Under the pieces are notes generated by a model. That model saw only the letters and a program-made list of their open reading frames with translations, was not told the origin of the DNA and did not search any database. Shown piece after piece: positions 14,176 to 24,928 of a DNA stretch of 36,964 bases (position 1 is the stretch's first letter; each line of letters starts with the position of its first letter). This DNA comes from a virus. The stretch covers positions 1-36,964 of IMG/VR virus record IMGVR_UViG_3300042371_000288. One strand, 5' to 3'. The translations under genes and the position numbers were made by a program.

Positions 14176-15846
14176 TTACCTATTAGTTGAATAAGCTGCG
14201 CCGATAGTAGATGCTGGACGTGCCATGCCGGCCAGTCCCATAGCCGCTTTAGCGCGTGTTGGGCCTGGTTGCCTCATGGCTTGCTCAACTAGAAAATCTT
14301 GCACTGCTGGCGACCAGATTCCCTTTGATACAGCATAAGTTGCTAACGCTTCAGGCAACACGCCCAACTGATGCCCTACGCCAGCCGCAAACAAATCAGC
14401 AATAGAAGATCGAGCAGCGGTTCCTGACTCTGGAAACTTATTCCCCATCAACTCAAGATTCTGACGCGCCCAATCCGTCCACGGCGCTTTGTTCATTGCA
14501 AACCCGCCTTTCCAGGATGAAGTGTCTTCAGCGCGTAATTGCTGCAAAAGATTAGCTGGAGTGGCTAATTCACTGCCGACTGAACTGGTTGACGCTTTGC
14601 CGAGCAAAGCCAATTTGCGATAAGCCGCATCCGCATTGCGCAAAATATCGGCATAACCTGGGTTTTGTTGTTCCATCATGCCAATCATTTCAGCCTTGAC
14701 TTGCTCAAAAGCCTTGCCAAGCAAATTATCGGTTGAGCCTTTATTTGGATTCTCTAGACTCGCAATCAGCTTATCCAGATCGCGGTCAATCAATTTTAAG
14801 GTTTCGCCAGGTATGCGTTGACCATCTTTGATTTTACTTAAAACAGTATCTTTCAACAACGCATCAAACTTTGATTGCGCTTTTGGCTCAATCTGTCCCG
14901 CCATATCACGCAATTGCAAAAAAGAATTTTGCAATTCTGGCGTCAATTCGCCGGATGAGTTTTTAGCAAGATCATTGTAAACATCGCCAACGGCTTTATA
15001 GACTTTCTCAAAACCTTTAGAACCTGGCTCAATGTCGCCAATGTTAGTAAACTTTTGCGTCAATCCTTGCAACTGTGGAGACATGACAGCGGTTGAGGAT
15101 GATGTTGCTTGCAGTCCCGTATTCAATTCATCAATAACGCCTTGCAATGATGCCGTGTTAAACGATTCAAGTGAACGTCTTTGCGCCTTTTCAATTGCTG
15201 AACCAACCAACGGAACTGATGTTAACTTTTCCTCTGCTGTTTTCCATCCGCTGCCTAACGCTTGCGCTAAGGTGGGTTTAACGCCCTTTTCCCAGAGCGG
15301 TTTGACATATTCTTGAGCGACTGGGCCGCGCATTGCTTTTGCTGCCAGGCCGGTTAAACCTTCGCCAATCATAGATCCACCAGCAACTAATCCTGCCTCT
15401 GTCATTCTGTTTTCAGGCGCTAACAATCCGCCGACAAGGCCAGAACTGACCGCACGCCCAATCATTGAAGCGGGGCCAAGACTGGTTGCTGCTGCGTATT
15501 GCGGTATTTGCTCAAGCGTTTGACCGAGGACGGCTGGCCATCCGGCTTCTGCTGTATAAGCCTTCATCCGGTCAAGTTCAGCAATATCAGACGGCGTTAA
15601 TTCAGCGCCAGGAATAAAACCTGCCATCAAGCCTTTCAAGCCTTTACCGCCGGTGCGTAAGCCAATCAAAGCGCCTTTGCCTATCCGCTCCATTGTGGTA
15701 TCACTGCGCGGGGACGATATATCAACCTGAAACTCATATTTACTGGGCTGATATTCTGGTTTTGGCAATGACTCAACGGACGGTTGTTGATATTGCGTCC
15801 AAGGGCCGCTTGGTTGAGTGCTATATTGTTCCCACGGTTTAGCCAT
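14176..15846 (-). CDS. Internal virion / DNA ejection protein (556 aa)
   Basis: GGAGAAGG sets ATG 15846, which shares one base with the previous stop (TAATG). The N-terminal 50 residues are Pro/Gln/Tyr-rich (PWEQYSTQPSGPWTQYQQP). The region of about 65-175 is Gly/Ala-rich and hydrophobic (GALIGLRTGGKGLKGLMAG, SSGLVGGLLAP), and the rest is mainly helical. Length, composition and place after two other internal proteins fit a P22 gp16/gp20-type ejection protein that enters the cell envelope ahead of DNA. Exact equivalence is inference. Confidence 0.7.
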   Translation of the reverse strand: MAKPWEQYSTQPSGPWTQYQQPSVESLPKPEYQPSKYEFQVDISSPRSDTTMERIGKGALIGLRTGGKGLKGLMAGFIPGAELTPSDIAELDRMKAYTAEAGWPAVLGQTLEQIPQYAAATSLGPASMIGRAVSSGLVGGLLAPENRMTEAGLVAGGSMIGEGLTGLAAKAMRGPVAQEYVKPLWEKGVKPTLAQALGSGWKTAEEKLTSVPLVGSAIEKAQRRSLESFNTASLQGVIDELNTGLQATSSSTAVMSPQLQGLTQKFTNIGDIEPGSKGFEKVYKAVGDVYNDLAKNSSGELTPELQNSFLQLRDMAGQIEPKAQSKFDALLKDTVLSKIKDGQRIPGETLKLIDRDLDKLIASLENPNKGSTDNLLGKAFEQVKAEMIGMMEQQNPGYADILRNADAAYRKLALLGKASTSSVGSELATPANLLQQLRAEDTSSWKGGFAMNKAPWTDWARQNLELMGNKFPESGTAARSSIADLFAAGVGHQLGVLPEALATYAVSKGIWSPAVQDFLVEQAMRQPGPTRAKAAMGLAGMARPASTIGAAYSTNR

Positions 15847-17291
15847 TACTGTACCTTCTCCCAATTGTTAGCTTGCGCCGGATCACCGCCTTTGAATTTA
15901 TAACCATCTTGAACAGTGCCAATTGTTGGGCCGGATGCTGTTTTTGATCGTTCTAATCTTTGTAAAAGATCCGGATATTTTGCTATGGCTTTTTGATTGA
16001 TGTCATAAACCACACGCAACGCCGCCTTGCGTGCTTCCGTTGGTGTGCGAGGATCAGCAATTGCACCAGCTGCGCCTTCCATCATTTTTTGTTCGTAATC
16101 TGAAATAGCGCCAGCGCCAACTAATGACTTGGCTAATCCTTTGATTTGCGCCTGAATGGGTTGCAGTTCAGCCGTAGCCGTAAAAGATTCATCCTGCCTA
16201 CCAAATTCACCCGATGTAATGCCTTTCACTCTAGCTTCTAAACCGCTAGACATGGATTTATCAATCAAATCGTTAATTGATTCAATCGGCGGCAATGTCT
16301 CTAGCGTTGAAACTTTGGTTTCTGCTGTTTCCTTTTTGCCTGCTGCGCTTTTAGCTTCTTCAATTGCTGTGGTTTCTTCAACCTTAGCCTTGCGCTCCCT
16401 TTGTTGACGCTGTTCTGGCGTTATAAACTGGCCGGAGGGTAGCCTTTGTTTAACCGCATCGGCCAACATAGCGCCGATCCTGACTTTTTCAGGGCTGCCA
16501 TTTGGCAATGCTTGAAACTGTTGTTGCATCATCTGAATATCTGCATCCGTAAGCGCCTCAGAGCGTGCGCCTTGCGGGATTTCAGCGGGTTGCATCATTG
16601 GAACGGGTGGCTTATACATTGCACCTTGTGGTGTCATTTCAACGCCGCCATAACGCTGTTCGTATGATGGCATTGGCCCCATGCGTCGTTCAGCGCCGCC
16701 ACGCGCGTAGGTTTGCGCTTCTGCTGATCTGCCTTCTAATTCAGCCTTGGTGCGGTTTGTCATGATGCCAAATTGCTGAGCCGCCCTATGGCCTGCGTCT
16801 GGCGTAATAGACTCAGGATCATAGCTGCCTGGTGGAATCGGTAAACCGGATTCTTGCAGTTGACGAATGGCGCTACCGTTGGCGGTGTGAAACTTGTTGA
16901 GCGCCATGGCAGGAGGCATGCCCGATGCAATATCCGCGTCATACTGATCGGCATTAGCGCCTAATGCGCCTGCTGCCATTTTGTTGACGCGCTCACTAAT
17001 CTGAGATTGCATATTTTGCATTTCAGATTGCTGCTTCATCATATCAAATTGGTTTCTGCCATATTGCTGCATGAATGACGGGCTGATCGCGCCAAGTTCA
17101 GCCGCAGTTGGCGCTTGATTGCGCTGAAACAATTCACGCAAACGTTGCTCCTCTGCAATCTGACGTTGTTTTTCTTGCAGGTTTAACTGTTCATTTTGCA
17201 ATATATAATTGCCAACCAATCCTTTTTGCCACGCTAATGGATCTGGCGCTGATGCTGCAATGGTTTTGTAAAGTTCGGTTAAATCAGCCAT
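15846..17291 (-). CDS. Internal virion / DNA ejection protein, coiled coil (481 aa)
   Basis: ATG 17291 has GGAG nine bases upstream and starts just after the previous stop. It opens MADLTELYKTIAASAPDPLAWQKG. Long Gln/Glu-rich helices (LQEKQRQIAEEQRLRELF and FQRNQ) predict coiled coil, followed by a Met/Pro/Gln-rich middle and a helical C-terminus with AGAISDYEQKMMEGA, a segment common in phage injection proteins. It probably packs inside the capsid with its neighbours and is ejected with the DNA. Confidence 0.7.
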   Translation of the reverse strand: MADLTELYKTIAASAPDPLAWQKGLVGNYILQNEQLNLQEKQRQIAEEQRLRELFQRNQAPTAAELGAISPSFMQQYGRNQFDMMKQQSEMQNMQSQISERVNKMAAGALGANADQYDADIASGMPPAMALNKFHTANGSAIRQLQESGLPIPPGSYDPESITPDAGHRAAQQFGIMTNRTKAELEGRSAEAQTYARGGAERRMGPMPSYEQRYGGVEMTPQGAMYKPPVPMMQPAEIPQGARSEALTDADIQMMQQQFQALPNGSPEKVRIGAMLADAVKQRLPSGQFITPEQRQQRERKAKVEETTAIEEAKSAAGKKETAETKVSTLETLPPIESINDLIDKSMSSGLEARVKGITSGEFGRQDESFTATAELQPIQAQIKGLAKSLVGAGAISDYEQKMMEGAAGAIADPRTPTEARKAALRVVYDINQKAIAKYPDLLQRLERSKTASGPTIGTVQDGYKFKGGDPAQANNWEKVQ

Positions 17292-17292
17292 G

Positions 17293-18153
17293 TTATTTAC
17301 TCCACCATCCTGCATCTTTGCCTGCGTTATAAATAGAACCAGCGTTACTACTGATCGCGTTCAGCATACCGCCAGCGCCAATATAGGGAGCCGCTGCTTG
17401 AGTTGCTGCTGCTTGCTGCATGGCACTGTAAGCCGGCGCTGATGCTTGCATGGTGCTAGTACCGATATTGCCAAGATTAGCCGCTGATTGAGCGCCAAGA
17501 TTAGCCGCGCCGCCGTAAATATCAGCCGCTTGAGCGCGTGATCCTAGCCGTTGCGCGTAATTCTGTTGGTTTTGTTGAAGTTGTGACGTGCCATACTGCT
17601 GCTGTTGGCTAAGATTTTGCTCAAATGCTCTGCCGTAAGCTTGTTGCGCTCTTTGCCACGCATTCTGAAAACCAGTAGAAGCAACGCCTTGTCCGTATTT
17701 CATAGCGGCTTTTTGTTGAGCGCCTGAAAGCAATCCACCGCGTGCTGCTGCACCTTGTCCCAGTGCTTGCAAGCCTTGCTCAAGTTCAAATTGATAACCA
17801 GGAGTTGCTTGCAGTTCCGCGAGATTGCGCACCATTGGCGTATACAGCGGAGACTGCTGATACTGCTCCATGGTGTACGGCGTGCGGTACTGGCTCAGAT
17901 CAGTCTGATACTGCGCGTATTGCTCAGGATCGGCTAATCCTCGCATCTGTTCGCGGTATGCTTTGGTGGCTTGCTGTCCTGTTTTCAGATACGGTGCAAA
18001 CCTTCCTGCGCTTTCACCATATAATTGCTTGATAAATGCCAGTTGCTGTTTAGCTAATTTGTTTTGCTGACCAGCCGCCGCACCTTGACCAGCCGCGCTA
18101 ACGCCAGCGCCTATAGCGCCAACCGCCGTACCTGCTACCGCTGCAAATGTCAT
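17293..18153 (-). CDS. DNA transfer / ejection-type protein (286 aa)
   Basis: The start is Gly/Ala-rich and hydrophobic (AAVAGTAVGAIGAGVSAAGQGAAAG), like the P22 gp7-type ejection proteins. The middle has TPGYQFELEQGLQALGQG and AARGGLLSG, a signature of phage DNA-transfer proteins, followed by Gln-rich helices. The end is Ala-rich. It forms a set of three with the next two genes and overlaps the upstream cupin gene by 4 bases. Confidence 0.75.
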   Translation of the reverse strand: MTFAAVAGTAVGAIGAGVSAAGQGAAAGQQNKLAKQQLAFIKQLYGESAGRFAPYLKTGQQATKAYREQMRGLADPEQYAQYQTDLSQYRTPYTMEQYQQSPLYTPMVRNLAELQATPGYQFELEQGLQALGQGAAARGGLLSGAQQKAAMKYGQGVASTGFQNAWQRAQQAYGRAFEQNLSQQQQYGTSQLQQNQQNYAQRLGSRAQAADIYGGAANLGAQSAANLGNIGTSTMQASAPAYSAMQQAAATQAAAPYIGAGGMLNAISSNAGSIYNAGKDAGWWSK

Positions 18154-18723: not shown

Positions 18724-19437
18724 TCAGATTTGAATCGCTGTAAATATAACGCTGGGTGTCACCGGTGTTGTTGGTGTTGTGCTTGCCGGTAAAGTTTGAA
18801 TTGAGATGTTAGTGTTTTCAGTTTGCCAGATCAATTCAATATAATCGCCAGCATTGACCGCTTGAATAAAGTTTAACGCTGCAATCAGTTTACCGTCATG
18901 ACTTCCGTGTTTATTCGGGATTGTGTACTGGCTATTGCTTTCAATAATATCAACGCCGTTAAGTCTAAACCAAATGTTAACTTCTGACGGTTGATTTGCA
19001 TTGTTTTCAGTGCTAACAAATTGAATACTAAACTGGCAATTATACACACCTGCAACGTCAAATGTTACGCGGGTTAGCGCCACAACAGTGACATTATAAT
19101 GCCCGTCAATCGTATCTAGTTCGACAGGATAAGCCGTTGTAGTGTTAGCTGCGTATTGGTCAGAGTTATCATAGAACTGTCCGTATGCCTTTTGTGCGGC
19201 TGGGCCTGACCATGTAACCCACGTCGTACCATTCCAAAATACAGGTTGACCAAGATCGGTATCAAAGTACGGCTGACCAATGAAAGCGTACTTAGTTGGA
19301 CGGTCAGTTGTTGCGCCGTTACCTATGACAGCCGATAGAATCGTTTGCACACGGTCAAACCATTGCTTCCACACCGGGCGCATGATACCGTTTGCGTCAG
19401 TGGCAACAGATTGAAATGGTGGTTGAGGGAATGTCAT
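18724..19437 (-). CDS. Virion-associated beta-sandwich protein (237 aa)
   Basis: It begins MTFPQPPFQSVATDANGIMRPVWKQWFDRVQTIL, a start common to phage tail or neck proteins that also contains a QPYFDTDLGQPVFWNGTTWV clip. Residues about 95-237 are a long beta-sandwich-like domain (AGVYNCQFSIQFVSTE, NIWFRLNGVDI, NAGDYIELIWQTE), resembling C1q/TNF-like jelly rolls used as trimeric knobs on phage appendages. That fold call is inference from strand pattern. The ATG overlaps the previous stop by 4 bases. Confidence 0.65.
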   Translation of the reverse strand: MTFPQPPFQSVATDANGIMRPVWKQWFDRVQTILSAVIGNGATTDRPTKYAFIGQPYFDTDLGQPVFWNGTTWVTWSGPAAQKAYGQFYDNSDQYAANTTTAYPVELDTIDGHYNVTVVALTRVTFDVAGVYNCQFSIQFVSTENNANQPSEVNIWFRLNGVDIIESNSQYTIPNKHGSHDGKLIAALNFIQAVNAGDYIELIWQTENTNISIQTLPASTTPTTPVTPSVIFTAIQI

Positions 19438-20336
19438 TTGAACATATCCATGATAGAGCGTTTTGTTTTTTTCCAATCCGTTTTGGACGCTAAATCAGCC
19501 AACTGTGCTGCTGTTAAAACATCGCCATAACCAGGCAAAGCGCCTACAGCGGTTGATGCAACATCACCATAACTCATGGGGCTTTCCATGCCATACTTAG
19601 CATATTGGTTAGTGGGATCATACGGTTCATTCAGCGCACTACGCGCCATACCAGCCAAACCGCCAGCGGCCATTAAGGTTGCTGCTGGGTGACTACGTAA
19701 AATGTTGGATGTTTTTGGGTTGAATTCCCCTGTATTGTCTGTAGCTGATTTGATTGCGTAAGGGTCTACAATAAGTTTGGAGTTTCCTGCATATTCATCA
19801 TACATATCTGCCGCAGAAAATCCAAGACGTTTTGCAATTGATCCTCTTAACTTTTGCATTAAAGCAAAATCATCACCTTCATAATAATTAGCAATATTTT
19901 GTATATTTTCCAGCAATCCTTCTTGGGTGACTGAATCTGCTAAATCTTTTATATTATCTTCGTTTATTACTTTTTTTCCAATAACATTATTTAAAAAATT
20001 AAATTCTTTTTTTTCGTTTTTTCTTCCGTATCTGACATCGCGAAAATAATCATCTATGTCATTAGATGTGGCTGAATTGCCTTTTAAGTACAAATAATTT
20101 GCTAATTGATTATTATTATTATTATGAAATTCAGCATCTAATTCTGCTGGCAAAACAAAAATTCCACCAAACTTTCCTTTGCTTGTATCAAGCCTATTAA
20201 ATGGTAATCCGTAATTTCTAAAAATTAAAGGGTTTTTATTTTCGTCAATGTGTTCACTATTTCCAAGCCAATTTTTTAAATTGTTTTTTGATGTTTTGGT
20301 ATTATAATTTTTGAACAATTCCGCTAATGATGCCAT
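19434..20336 (-). CDS. ADP-ribosyltransferase-like domain protein within the virion gene cluster (300 aa)
   Basis: Residues 20-213 follow the layout of the ART-like domain found in phage polyvalent/MuF-type effectors: NWLGNSEHIDENKNPLIF (22-39), then LDTSKGKFGGIFV (49-61), and the closing DPYAIKSATDNTGEF (191-205). The usual YHGT catalytic start is FRNYG (39-43), so the expected His is missing. Residues 214-300 are a hydrophobic Gly/Ala-rich tail (AATLMAAGGLAGMA) with a basic end. The gene is AT-rich with poly-Asn (72-76), unlike its neighbours, suggesting acquisition. It lies between gp10-like and ejection genes, so it may be packaged and injected. It could also be an inactive relic or a structural protein. 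Confidence 0.55.
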   Translation of the reverse strand: MASLAELFKNYNTKTSKNNLKNWLGNSEHIDENKNPLIFRNYGLPFNRLDTSKGKFGGIFVLPAELDAEFHNNNNNQLANYLYLKGNSATSNDIDDYFRDVRYGRKNEKKEFNFLNNVIGKKVINEDNIKDLADSVTQEGLLENIQNIANYYEGDDFALMQKLRGSIAKRLGFSAADMYDEYAGNSKLIVDPYAIKSATDNTGEFNPKTSNILRSHPAATLMAAGGLAGMARSALNEPYDPTNQYAKYGMESPMSYGDVASTAVGALPGYGDVLTAAQLADLASKTDWKKTKRSIMDMFK

Positions 20337-20337
20337 G

Positions 20338-21981
20338 TTATTTATCCGCCTGAGTTGCCATTGCCGCCGCCGCAATGAAGATTACTTTTACAGGGTCAGT
20401 GATTCTAAACTTGAACACGAAGTTACGCGATACGCCAAGCCTACGCCATTCAGCACGCTTGTTATATTCACCCATGCGCCCGAATGAAGTCCACATCTCA
20501 TTTCCGTAAGCAAAGCCACCATCACGACTGACCTGCAACATTATTTGAGGATTTGAGCCTTGACCAGTCACTAGGCCGGTGCCTTGCTCCATATCTAACC
20601 GTAGCCGATAGATGTGCAATTTGTTGAATGAGTCAGCCGCAAAAAAGTGAGGTGTTATCAATTCCCGCGCTATTTCCTCGCCGTTGTCGGTAAAATGCTC
20701 AGGGTCAAGATAATACAATTTGCCGGTGCGATAATCGGCGGTTATTGCTTGATTGATAAATTGAGTGCCGCGATTCCCATAATGCCGCGTGTCATGGCCT
20801 GATTGCAGTTTCGACCATACTTCCGTGGTGTCGTCATAAAGCCACGTTACGCCTTCTTGCTGGAATGAAATCTGATAAAACTCATGTCCATTCTGGCGAT
20901 AGCTGAACGCGATAGCATCACCTGGGTTGCTGTATTGGCTAAACAAGTAGTCCAAGTCCGTCGTGGAAACAACAACAGGCTGGTAGTTTTGAATTTTAAC
21001 GACCGACAATCCACCGCGCCGCGTGCGTCCCAAATAGAATAGCTGACCGCCGCATCGAGCCATTGACCAGCGAGCCGCGATACCAATGTCAGTTGGTGAA
21101 CCTGCTATACGTGACAACGGGAACGGAAAGCCGCCATCGTTTTGCCAGTATTCTTGCGATATAGCGCCAAGCAAAACCAGGTTTCCGTTGTCCACCGTTA
21201 CGGCTTGCAGATCATCCGTGTACGCTTCTTTGCTGGCGTATTGCAGCGGGTCCCAGTAGAGTCCATCGTACTGCCCTGACAGCCAAAATTGCTTGGTACC
21301 AGGATTGTTGATTATGAAATACGAATCAAGAAAAACGACCGTGTTAGCGCCAGGAAAATCAACGCCAGTGCTGGCGGATGTTATTTCTCTAAAGTTGTTG
21401 ACAACCTTAATAGTGCCGGACGCGCTACCGCTGGCGACGGTGTTAAACGTCCACTCGTTGCCGCCCGTAACGGTTATGGTGTAGTTTCCGCCGAGAAGGT
21501 TAGCGTCGCCATCAATCGTTACAACATCGCCTGTCACGCGGTTTGTGAGCGGTTCTGTAACCGTGACCAGAGTAAGCGTGCGACTGTACGCCAATGAAGC
21601 AGTTTGTGGTTGAAATATGTAACCGTTTTCGCCGTCAACAATGATGAGTTGTTGACCATTATCGGACATGGACACGGTGCCAGATCCGGTAGCCAGCGCA
21701 CCGCGCCTTATGCTTACGCCATCACCACGAACCTCAAAAAGTTCGTTATTGACTACAACGTATAACAGGTTTAACGCTTGAAACCACCACATACCGCGTG
21801 CTGGATTACCGCCGAAGTCAGTAAATAGCCTTAAGCCTGGCGTGCCATAAGCCACTAATGCGCTTTTATCCTGTTCCTTTTTGACTTCTAGGAATATGTT
21901 CTGGCGAACCTGAGCAGTGATAGCGCGAGAGCGTCCATCAACGCCTGGGCCGAGTATTGGCAGTTTGATTGTGCTAGGCAT
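20338..21981 (-). CDS. P22 gp10-like packaged-DNA stabilisation protein (tail hub)
   Basis: 547 aa, close to gp10 family size. It begins MPSTIKLPILGPGVDGRSRAI and contains AYGTPGLRLFTDFG, RGMWWF and later FSYRQNGHEFYQISF, all typical of the gp10 beta-rich hub. An inserted Ig-like segment (about 135-190, TEPLTNRVTGDVVTIDGD) is also seen. The protein closes the head and forms the central hub of the short tail, below gp4. It overlaps the gp4-like gene by one base, the same order as in P22. Confidence 0.85.
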   Translation of the reverse strand: MPSTIKLPILGPGVDGRSRAITAQVRQNIFLEVKKEQDKSALVAYGTPGLRLFTDFGGNPARGMWWFQALNLLYVVVNNELFEVRGDGVSIRRGALATGSGTVSMSDNGQQLIIVDGENGYIFQPQTASLAYSRTLTLVTVTEPLTNRVTGDVVTIDGDANLLGGNYTITVTGGNEWTFNTVASGSASGTIKVVNNFREITSASTGVDFPGANTVVFLDSYFIINNPGTKQFWLSGQYDGLYWDPLQYASKEAYTDDLQAVTVDNGNLVLLGAISQEYWQNDGGFPFPLSRIAGSPTDIGIAARWSMARCGGQLFYLGRTRRGGLSVVKIQNYQPVVVSTTDLDYLFSQYSNPGDAIAFSYRQNGHEFYQISFQQEGVTWLYDDTTEVWSKLQSGHDTRHYGNRGTQFINQAITADYRTGKLYYLDPEHFTDNGEEIARELITPHFFAADSFNKLHIYRLRLDMEQGTGLVTGQGSNPQIMLQVSRDGGFAYGNEMWTSFGRMGEYNKRAEWRRLGVSRNFVFKFRITDPVKVIFIAAAAMATQADK

Positions 21982-23086: not shown

Positions 23087-24928
23087 TTACAGCGCCGCTA
23101 TTATGAACGCAAACAATTCATCATATCTTACACCAAGCCGAGTATGCTCAATTCCTTCATTGTCTATCCATGTGTCAGAACAAAAAACGCCATATTCTTC
23201 TGCATTTAATCCTTCATTCTCAAATACTTGTTTTACATCTTGAGCAATAACGCCAACATGAATACGTGCTTCACTTCCTTTTAACGCTACAGCATCTTTA
23301 AATTTAAACCGTTTAATCATTCCTTTTAATGCTTTAGCTACGCGCATTTCAGCATCATTCAAATCATCAATATCTTGTTTTGCGTTAGCGTCGGAGGTAT
23401 TGATTGTGCCAGTTGTTGCGTAAACAACAGTCCATCTAAAAGATGAATTACCTAAGCTGCGCGTGTTGTCAGTTGCGGGAGCGATTGCGCTGTTAATTGT
23501 AAAGCTATTGGCTTGTATTTGAACAGTGCCAGAATAGAACGCTAATACGCCATTACCAACTGAACCAGTGCCGGCAGATGCAATAATTCTTGAATCATAA
23601 TCTATGGCATTGCCAGACGTGTTGAAGTCAATATATGACGAACCAGATGCAGTTGTAGAACCAAGATCAATGTGACTATTAGCTGCTGCAATCGCAAAAG
23701 AATCATTTGTGAGTGTAACAGCGCCAGATTCTAAAACATTGCCGGTGCATTGAGGAATTGAAAAACCTCTATCTACTGTGCTGGCCGCTTGCGCCACTAA
23801 AACAGTGCTATCAGTTCCAATGGCGTGACCGCCATTTGTTGCTGCAATCCGAATTGCATTGCGCCATGTTACCGTTGCTGACGGCAAATTAGACAGAACA
23901 ATGCCCGCGTCGGTTTGCGTGCCTCTGACATTACCGCCACCCACTACCTGTATGCCTGACCTGTAATAGGTAGATGATCCAGTTGCACAAGATGAGTTAA
24001 ATTCAGCGGCGGTAACGTTAGTTGTATTTAACGCTCCGGCATATATTCGACCGTAGAAGTTACCTCCAAAATATCCGCCTTTTGCTAATGCCGGATTCGA
24101 GGAACTAGTACCACCGTCGCCAGTTGCGCTCTGTGATACGCCCACAACGCCAACATAGTTACGATCAGGATTTGCGCTTTCAGTTATAGCATCTTGAATC
24201 AAAACGGCTTCTATTGCGTGCCTACCGCCTTGCGTACCAGTGCCGCCAAAAGAATGTTCAACAAGTAATCCGTCTACTTTTGTGCCGTTTGCATCAGGCG
24301 ATGCGTCTAACTGATCGGATGCAATTTTGATTCTGTTATATTGAAGCGTAGAGGAGGACGCTGTGCCAGTGTTACCACCAAGCAATTCAATACCGAAACC
24401 TTTGGTTTCTTGGTTATCCAGTCCTTCGCCAGTGCCGCCAGCAAATAAATAAAAGTTTCTTCCAGAATTAGAAACGGTTCCTCCATTTGCGTAAATTCTT
24501 GCGCCAGCTTCATACGAAAATCTGGCAGTGCTTGGAATCGTAAGCGTGCCAGAAGTGATAGCATAATCACCACCAGCCAAATCCACGGGAACATAGATCG
24601 TTTTTCCGTTCGCAGACGCAATGCAATTTGTTAATGCTGTGAGATTATTGGTTGTTCCATCGCCTACAGCGCCAAAATCTTTTACAGAAACGCAATCGCC
24701 AAAACCATCAGAAATAAGCCTTGGCGTTGCGTTTGCGAACTGCGTTCCATCACTGGATACAGCAAAAGTGCTAGAAGTCGTTACACTTGCACCGCTGCTA
24801 CTCAGTTGCAAACCGGTAGGGTTGCCGTTTCCATCTTGAACGGTTTTCAAGGTAGACGTAATTCCACCAGGGACTTGCAATAACCCGTCAAAGGTTTGAT
24901 TTATCTGCTGATTAGATAGATTGGACAT
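23087..24928 (-). CDS. Tailspike with pectate-lyase-like repeats and S74 self-cleaving chaperone
   Basis: 613 aa. Residues 1-70 are an attachment module (LSNQQINQTFDGLLQVPGGIT). DGFGDCVSVKDFGAVGDG (74-91) marks the start of a right-handed beta-helix as in polysaccharide-binding or depolymerase spikes. The central part is Gly/Ser/Thr-rich strand repeats. From about 508 comes a peptidase S74 chaperone: S512 and K517 (TSDANAKQDI) are the usual Ser-Lys pair for self-cleavage before S512, followed by IAQDVKQVF and a C-terminal coil. It is unusual in sitting between fiber-like 24956 and gp4. Confidence 0.85.
   Translation of the reverse strand: MSNLSNQQINQTFDGLLQVPGGITSTLKTVQDGNGNPTGLQLSSSGASVTTSSTFAVSSDGTQFANATPRLISDGFGDCVSVKDFGAVGDGTTNNLTALTNCIASANGKTIYVPVDLAGGDYAITSGTLTIPSTARFSYEAGARIYANGGTVSNSGRNFYLFAGGTGEGLDNQETKGFGIELLGGNTGTASSSTLQYNRIKIASDQLDASPDANGTKVDGLLVEHSFGGTGTQGGRHAIEAVLIQDAITESANPDRNYVGVVGVSQSATGDGGTSSSNPALAKGGYFGGNFYGRIYAGALNTTNVTAAEFNSSCATGSSTYYRSGIQVVGGGNVRGTQTDAGIVLSNLPSATVTWRNAIRIAATNGGHAIGTDSTVLVAQAASTVDRGFSIPQCTGNVLESGAVTLTNDSFAIAAANSHIDLGSTTASGSSYIDFNTSGNAIDYDSRIIASAGTGSVGNGVLAFYSGTVQIQANSFTINSAIAPATDNTRSLGNSSFRWTVVYATTGTINTSDANAKQDIDDLNDAEMRVAKALKGMIKRFKFKDAVALKGSEARIHVGVIAQDVKQVFENEGLNAEEYGVFCSDTWIDNEGIEHTRLGVRYDELFAFIIAAL

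What the first reader, a model, noticed from the sequence alone, without database searches (positions are those of the whole stretch)
19434..20336. ADP-ribosyltransferase-like protein inside the ejection/tail gene cluster
The sequence shows the frame of the phage ART-like effectors (NWLGNSEHID..., SKGKFGGIF, DPYAIKSATDNTGEF), a lost YHGT motif (FRNYG), an AT-rich poly-Asn body and a hydrophobic tail, between gp10 and the ejection proteins. Known ART effectors of phages modify host RNA polymerase or translation proteins, some as packaged virion proteins. Here a separate, unfused copy could be an injected effector with changed chemistry, or a decaying one.
Basis: partly seen in the sequence, partly recalled or inferred. 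Interest (0 to 1): 0.75.

Follow-up and report, generated by a model that had tools for sequence, protein, structure and literature searches.

The report
Exchangeable ADP-ribosyltransferase in phage tail operon
A phage carries, among the genes for its tail and DNA-ejection proteins, a gene related to a known anti-CRISPR enzyme that tags proteins with ADP-ribose; sister phages have a different enzyme of the same general type, or nothing, at the same spot, so it looks like a swappable weapon that may be delivered with the phage DNA.

Summary
The ORF is real (300 codons, minus strand, 19434-20336) and its body is ART-like, but its nearest solved relatives are AcrIF11 anti-CRISPR ADP-ribosyltransferases: NCBIfam AcrIF11 E=1.4e-5 (26.1 bits; curated cut-off 50); an HMM of relatives built without it gives 6e-16; the predicted fold ranks 6KYF (AcrIF11) first and 8DWQ (AcrIF11Pae2) second. 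The Asp-Glu pair, Gln-x-x-Arg-Gly and a second-motif His are kept; the strand-1 His is not (FRN). It has the leader and trailer of ART domains of polyvalent phage proteins, but stands alone. Of 63 loci sharing the upstream gp10-like gene, 48 have nothing in this slot, 14 an ART of one of three kinds, one an HNH gene. N-terminus and C-terminal tail are shared with a sister whose body is a different ART, so bodies are swapped inside a fixed frame. Its first residues resemble the start of the phage's own ejection protein, hinting at a delivery tag. Best reading: an exchangeable ART effector of the virion module, probably injected; target and activity unknown. Decay is not supported. New variant of a known kind.

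The parts
19434..20336 (-). ART-like effector gene, 300 aa
20310..20336 (-). first 9 codons (MASLAELFK), homologous to the start of the slot gene of a sister phage with another body; resembles the start of the phage's own second ejection protein (MADLTELYK)
20229..20285 (-). leader NNLKNWLGNSEHIDENKNP, the counterpart of NFWRWFGDSxxxDxxGxP before polyvalent ART domains
20214..20222 (-). strand-1 motif F39-R40-N41 where relatives have YH or FH
   Evidence: AcrIF11 key residues from PMC12421852
20157..20168 (-). GGIF (G58, F60 invariant in 23 sequences)
20124..20126 (-). H71, His in 23 of 23 rows of A6 (not in the MW202426 relative, which is outside A6)
19842..19856 (-). Q161-K-L-R164-G165; Q, R, G invariant in 23 sequences
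19794..19799 (-). D180-E181, counterpart of AcrIF11 D115/E116 (Pae1) and D146/E147 (Pae2)
19716..19754 (-). trailer IKSATDNTGEFNP, seen at the end of polyvalent ART domains
19437..19694 (-). C-terminal tail module, 97% identical to that of a sister gene with a different ART body; 43% identical to the linker between two ARTs in L164
20338..21981 (-). gp10-like head-closure (Hc3) gene, upstream neighbour and anchor of the slot survey
18724..19437 (-). next tail/virion gene, ATGA overlap with the effector gene
17293..18153 (-). DNA ejection protein (phrog_598, 3.6e-8)
15846..17291 (-). second ejection protein (MADLTELYK start), assigned by gene order
   Evidence: no significant family hit

Best explanation
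The gene is an accessory effector cassette fixed between gp10 and the tail/ejection genes of a group of P22-type podoviruses. Its body is an ADP-ribosyltransferase-fold domain of the clade that contains AcrIF11, framed by the leader and trailer of polyvalent-protein ARTs, by a short N-terminus shared with other slot ARTs and resembling an ejection-protein start, and by a shared C-terminal tail. Shown: ORF, homology, slot, swap of the body inside a fixed frame. Inferred: it is made late with the virion proteins, travels with the ejection proteins and acts in the new host on a host protein, possibly an immunity protein. Catalysis is likely but open, because the strand-1 His is replaced.
For: Sequence: phrog_11282 2.7e-6, whose Moraxella and Erwinia phage members score 112.6 and 134.6 bits for AcrIF11; the window itself 1.4e-5 for AcrIF11; HMM of 22 relatives without the window, 6.1e-16 among 2505 ORFs; tblastn to a polyvalent protein of MW202426, 5e-15. 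Fold: 6KYF first (Foldseek probability 1.00, next row 0.11; Z 8.2), 8DWQ second (Z 5.4). Positions kept. Slot: 14 of 63 loci hold an ART of one of three kinds, 48 go straight to the tail gene, 1 has an HNH gene; body swap against L108 with homology ending at 20310 and resuming at 19692. A kind C slot protein has an ART fold, best match a virion pre-ejectosome protein. N-terminus closest to its own ejection protein among 95 other starts in the window.
Against: No Pfam ART hit for the window protein, and the AcrIF11 score is below the curated cut-off. The model is only moderately confident (mean pLDDT 64; first 70 modelled residues near 50), its alignment is made of AcrIF11-like rows, and Foldseek E is 0.017. 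Strand-1 His absent. No virion proteomics, no activity, no target. The tag motif was written after seeing the sequences; in 3 of the 8 loci with both genes (L163, L165, L176) the ejection protein is not the best match, and MW202573, whose ART lies on the other side of gp10, shows no such resemblance.
Confidence: 0.6

Rival explanations
1. A catalytically dead ART-derived protein kept for binding only, for example as a virion accessory part or as a binder that blocks a host target without chemistry.
For: No His at residues 39-41. The H20A/Y46A double mutant of AcrIF11Pae2 is inactive (PMC12421852 section 7); that H20 is the strand-1 His is my inference. Two relatives read Ser or Ala in the aligned column (L106, L096).
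Against: D180-E181, H71, Q161 and R164-G165 are kept, as in 23 of 23 aligned sequences; 48 of 63 loci lack the gene, so it is not an essential structural part.
Confidence: 0.2
2. An active ART made late that works in the producing cell (host take-over, exclusion of rivals) and is not packaged.
For: No packaging has been shown; T4 ModA and ModB are ARTs that, unlike Alt, are not injected (PMC5512222 section 9).
Against: Position inside the tail/ejection cluster with overlapping stop and start, N-terminal resemblance to the ejection protein, an ART-like segment in a solved virion pre-ejectosome.
Confidence: 0.15
3. An ordinary structural tail protein unrelated to ARTs, or a decaying ORF.
For: No Pfam hit above cut-off; very low GC and Asn-rich.
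Against: ART homology; intact, coding-biased, identical in two samples; precise empty slots in sisters.
Confidence: 0.03

Closest known systems
AcrIF11 anti-CRISPR ADP-ribosyltransferases (NF052490; PDB 6KYF, 8DWQ)
   Same: First and second in the fold comparison; D-E pair, His of the second motif, Q-x-x-R-G
   Different: Below the curated score, no strand-1 His, extra leader, trailer, N-terminal tag and C-terminal tail, located in the virion gene cluster
ART-PolyVal domains of large polyvalent proteins (PF18760; PMC5512222)
   Same: Leader WFGDS..D..P and trailer IKSA..N.G.F; Asp of the last motif; AcrIF11-type domains also occur inside LPD-bearing polyvalent proteins
   Different: Stands alone as a 300-aa gene; not detected by the Pfam model
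Phage T4 Alt and other head-packaged ARTs (PMC5512222 section 9, PMC9503650 passages)
   Same: ART encoded among virion genes
   Different: Alt is of the R-S-E type in a contractile-tailed phage; packaging is known there and untested here
Cyanophage A4 pre-ejectosome protein (PDB 9K3A chain B)
   Same: Residues 1423-1604 are the best structural match of the kind C slot ART (Z 8.7, rmsd 6.4, 151 aligned), and the chain is third for the window model (Z 4.1)
   Different: There the segment is part of a long chain; a sequence profile of kind C does not match it; its paper is not held, so whether its authors call it an ART is unknown to me

Membership tests
AcrIF11 family (NF052490) | NCBI curated score cut-off (50 bits) | tested here: not met
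   26.1 bits, E 1.4e-5, residues 111-182
AcrIF11 family (NF052490) | Fold of 6KYF/8DWQ | tested here: met
   Z 8.2 and 5.4, first and second of 231 chains; 6KYF Foldseek rank 1, but E 0.017, and the alignment rows are AcrIF11-like
AcrIF11 family (NF052490) | Asp-Glu pair (D115/E116, D146/E147) | tested here: met
   D180-E181; DE in 23 of 23 rows
AcrIF11 family (NF052490) | Strand-1 His | tested here: not met
   F39-R40-N41; the column could be any of the three depending on the alignment, and none is His; 19 of 23 rows have His in the A6 column, the window, L073, L106 and L096 do not
AcrIF11 family (NF052490) | Second-motif His (or Tyr) | tested here: met
   H71, His in 23 of 23 rows; that this is the second His of H-F-H-D is inferred from the SHG alignment
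AcrIF11 family (NF052490) | ADP-ribosylates Csy1/Cas8f and blocks type I-F CRISPR | not testable with these tools
   -
ART-PolyVal (PF18760) | Pfam gathering score 31.2 | tested here: not met
   no ART-PolyVal hit at E<=1; its relative in MW202426 20.9 bits
ART-PolyVal (PF18760) | His strand 1, Tyr strand 2, Asp strand 5 | tested here: not met
   Asp kept; strand-1 His absent; His71 where Tyr is expected (feature from PMC5512222 section 9)
ART-PolyVal (PF18760) | Leader and trailer seen around polyvalent ARTs | tested here: met
Virion-injected effectors | Present in the virion | not testable with these tools
Virion-injected effectors | Gene within the virion morphogenesis cluster | tested here: met
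Virion-injected effectors | N-terminal packaging tag shared with an ejected protein | tested here: inconclusive
   best match in 5 of 8 loci with both genes, not in 3; post hoc motif

The most novel reading that the evidence does not exclude
P22-type phages load an exchangeable ART, here an AcrIF11 relative, into the particle through a short N-terminal tag shared with an ejection protein, so that an anti-immunity enzyme (perhaps anti-CRISPR) reaches the host together with the DNA, before any phage gene is expressed; ART bodies, and even a variable segment inside them, are swapped behind a constant tag, as in polymorphic toxins.
Probability: 0.2. Interest if true: 0.85.

Novelty: new variant of a known kind. 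Interest (0 to 1): 0.6.

Why it matters
It ties two literatures that my search did not find joined: AcrIF11 anti-CRISPR enzymes and ART domains of virion-type polyvalent proteins. It shows a single genomic slot in which three ART kinds, a double-ART fusion and empty alleles alternate between relatives, which makes target switching in the phage-host arms race testable. If the tag hypothesis holds, it gives a podovirus counterpart of a capsid-targeting signal and a way in which an enzymatic anti-CRISPR could be pre-deployed.

Tried and rejected
T4 Alt-like ART: not seen among the matches, which are on the AcrIF11/polyvalent side; this is absence from the lists, not a test. Pfam's best match was a restriction-enzyme model (0.03), below cut-off and unsupported. 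phmmer of the window protein alone against PDB sequences put lysosomal protective protein first (0.045) and AcrF11 sixth (0.34), neither significant. The A3 profile hit on 6KYF (3e-15) is partly circular, because A3 contains two proteins that score as AcrIF11. For the kind C model, Foldseek's 50 shown rows hold 9K3A first (probability 0.94) and otherwise unrelated proteins with probability 0.09 or less; the toxin and PARP matches come only from the VIA second look. Profile A8 has no sequence match to 9K3A. Membrane-spanning tail: rejected. The first alignment A5 misplaced the N-terminus; I realigned from residue 12 (A6) and used that. The tail module was found only in slot genes and in no named phage. 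Host: the single hit in the genome collection is a Polaromonas contig whose slot looks empty by eye; host and its CRISPR type remain unknown. Promoter-like and terminator-like sites were near the shuffled numbers (6 against 7.2, 6 against 4.0). Seven of the 72 anchor loci (L170-L175, L177) were left out of the slot survey because the match does not reach the end of gp10; two more (L114, L158) had no downstream gene in the contig. 'Empty' was scored by the N-terminal pattern of the tail gene.

Full report
Observation. The window is a 36,964-base virus record. The reported ORF lies on the minus strand, 20336 to 19434, with an ATG one base after the stop of a gp10-like head-closure gene and a stop that overlaps the ATG of the next tail gene. 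The body (residues 34-190) has 28.5% GC against 46.9% for the window, yet none of 20000 base shuffles of it was free of stops, and GC falls from 0.414 to 0.166 from the first to the third codon position. Another contig, L002, has the same ORF letter for letter. So this is a maintained, probably recently acquired gene, not a relic.

What the body is. Pfam does not recognise it as an ART. PHROG 11282 (2.7e-6, residues 122-190) and the NCBIfam AcrIF11 model (1.4e-5, 26.1 bits against a cut-off of 50, residues 111-182) match its second half; an HMM of 22 relatives built without the window matches residues 52-209 (6.1e-16 among 2505 ORFs). The best relative in named phages is a segment of a 3145-aa protein of MW202426 (29.7% identity over residues 11-215, 5e-15), aligned without gaps from W23 to G43, with YHHYG where the window has FRNYG. 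That segment leads to 58 loci; of 65 segments printed, which include the window, L002 and MW202426, 40 also show the trailer pattern. Most sit in large ORFs and share the leader NFWRWFGDS..D..G.PLVVYHGT and the trailer IKSATGN.G.FDP; the window's LKNWLGNSEHIDENKNPLIFRNYG and IKSATDNTGEFNP are the same frame. AlphaFold2 of residues 12-300 gave a confident helical core, a weak first 70 residues and a weak tail (mean pLDDT 64). Foldseek ranked AcrIF11 (6KYF) first with probability 1.00, the next row 0.11 (E 0.017); VIA-align gave 6KYF Z 8.2, 8DWQ (AcrIF11Pae2) Z 5.4, a cyanophage A4 pre-ejectosome chain Z 4.1, and the rest 2.3 or less. The alignment rows were AcrIF11-like and a best Z near 8 is not rare for chance, but the two solved AcrIF11 structures coming first and second is hard to explain otherwise.

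Active site. Chen et al. (PMC12421852, passages and sections 5 and 7) name H-F-H-D as key residues of AcrIF11Pae1, D115/E116 and D146/E147 as the acidic pair, and show that D115A of Pae1 and D146A/E147A and H20A/Y46A of Pae2 are inactive. In the window D180-E181, H71, F60, Q161 and R164-G165 are kept, as in 23 of 23 aligned sequences; which of these corresponds to the F and the second H is my inference. The MW202426 relative, not among the 23, has Gly-Tyr-Gly near H71. The strand-1 His is missing: the stretch reads F39-R40-N41. Alignment A6 puts F39 in the His column, the Y/F-H pair suggests R40, and the distance from the leader proline suggests N41; I cannot decide. In A6, 19 of 23 rows have His there; the window, L073, L106 and L096 do not, although L073, L106 and L096 pass the AcrIF11 cut-off (54.7, 73.6 and 66.9 bits). 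So the change is not unique to the window and leaves activity open.

The slot. I took the C-terminal 199 residues of the gp10-like protein as an anchor: 72 IMG/VR loci. I examined 65 of them; 63 had a gene downstream. In 48 the next tail gene follows directly; one has an HNH/AP2 gene (L157); 14 loci (9 distinct proteins, one of them the window's own in L002) have an ART. There are three kinds: A, the window type; B, with VYHG (L108; L164, L166, L168; ART-PolyVal 33.5 bits, above the gathering score of 31.2, in L164; 20.3 bits, below it, in L108's protein); C, with SHGSPH...GTGEGAQAYGHG (L110, L111, L141, L154, L162, L163, L165, L169, L176). Six kind C proteins had no significant Pfam ART hit (best 0.041), so I predicted the fold of one: pLDDT 87.6. 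The best VIA match is the cyanophage A4 pre-ejectosome chain, residues 1423-1604 (Z 8.7, rmsd 6.4), followed by diphtheria-toxin, tankyrase, PARP, cholix, AcrIF11 and toxin-antitoxin ART-type structures (Z 6.8 to 4.6), then two unrelated rows at 2.2 and 2.1. Foldseek itself lists 9K3A first (probability 0.94, E 0.01) and otherwise only unrelated proteins at 0.09 or less among the 50 rows shown. HMMs of the three kinds hit, among the ORFs of L107-L182 and the window, only these slot genes and a 679-aa protein just upstream of gp10 in MW202573 (ART-PolyVal 65.5 bits). In four other named phages whose gp10 neighbourhood I opened no ART is annotated and the HMMs found none; their hypothetical genes beside gp10 were not studied further. 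In the Polaromonas contig the slot looks empty by eye.

Modularity. Against L108, the window is homologous up to position 20310 (codon 9) and again from 19692 (residue 215) on; the body between is a different ART. Against L110 and L111 homology ends at 20314 and 20317 and resumes at 19440, so only the first codons and the very end are shared; against L112, L113 and L115 the slot is missing precisely (20335-20338 and 19438-19439). L164, L166 and L168 carry a 611-aa fusion of kind B, a relative of the tail, and kind C. Inside kind C, L111 and L165, whose gp10 proteins are 98% and 57% identical to the window's, share the segment after the second motif (46 of 65 positions), while L165 and L162, otherwise close (40 of 41 and 62 of 64 in two other segments), do not (10 of 42). 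Chen et al. hypothesise that the helical region sets the target in AcrIF11. This looks like target switching.

Delivery. The first residues MASLAELFK are closest, among 95 other possible starts in the window, to MADLTELYK, the start of the second ejection protein; the same holds in L108, L111, L166 and L168, and not in L163, L165 and L176, whose kind C genes start with MGLQ but end with SLADLLRK. In L163 and L165 the ejection protein itself starts MASLAEFL. Against the idea: in L142 and L159, whose slots are empty, and in the named relatives, the proteins at this place start differently, and so does the pair in MW202573; but L112, L113 and L115, also empty, have the DLTELY start. A motif scan found 27 matches in 419 ORFs: 18 at protein ends, 3 more at ejection-protein starts read from an earlier Met, 6 elsewhere; the motif was written after seeing the sequences, so this is a lead. 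L135 and L137 have, just upstream of gp10, genes that share the N-terminal module of the L141 ART but have other bodies, one metallopeptidase-like by its HELQH motif (Pfam only 0.021). T4 internal proteins use a short N-terminal capsid-targeting sequence (recalled, no call), which is the model I have in mind. Iyer et al. predict that polyvalent ARTs are packaged and modify host proteins (PMC5512222 section 9), and the 2022 survey puts about 44% of the phage ARTs it found in contexts that suggest packaging (PMC9503650, passages).

Verdict. I do not file the protein as AcrIF11 (score and strand-1 His fail) nor as ART-PolyVal in Pfam's sense. It is an ART-fold relative of both, in an exchangeable effector slot. 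What is new is the link between AcrIF11-type domains and virion-type polyvalent ARTs (four relatives, L013, L073, L106 and L096, pass the AcrIF11 cut-off, and two of them, L013 and L106, lie in LPD-bearing proteins), and the slot with its swaps. In the held library no paper holds both 'AcrIF11' and 'polyvalent', nor 'anti-CRISPR', 'ejection proteins' and 'packaged'. A broader search found 29 papers, of which 12 were listed; none of those titles or abstract starts reports a packaged anti-CRISPR, and I looked for passages in two.

Noticed in passing
L164 5702-7537 (also L166, L168): 611-aa fusion of two different ART kinds joined by a relative of the tail module that ends the window protein.
   Followed up: yes
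L135 1377-2933; L137 3024-3815: Genes upstream of gp10 that share the N-terminal module of the L141 slot ART but carry other bodies, one with a metallopeptidase-like HELQH motif (Pfam 0.021), one unknown.
   Followed up: partly
L013 3992-4705; L106 4725-5423: AcrIF11-type domains above NCBI's curated cut-off inside large proteins with LPD domains.
   Followed up: partly
L111 1321-2238 against L165 5888-6679: A variable segment of kind C ARTs is shared between distant phages and differs between close ones, as if swapped.
   Followed up: partly
L157 5773-6285; L003 3116-3655 (minus): An HNH/AP2-type endonuclease gene in the slot (L157) and, by eye, a homing-endonuclease-like gene just upstream of gp10 (L003).
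   Followed up: no
L116 8811-9853: A weakly sulfotransferase-like gene (0.026) and an Asp/Asn beta-hydroxylase-like gene (7.5e-6) between the tail gene and the ejection genes.
   Followed up: no
L178 2081-4120 (MW202573.1): 679-aa protein just upstream of gp10, annotated 'DNA repair protein', with two ART-PolyVal stretches and a ParB-type PHROG match.
   Followed up: partly
window 23087-24928: Tail spike with a Peptidase_S74 chaperone end and a weak pectate-lyase-like part.
   Followed up: no
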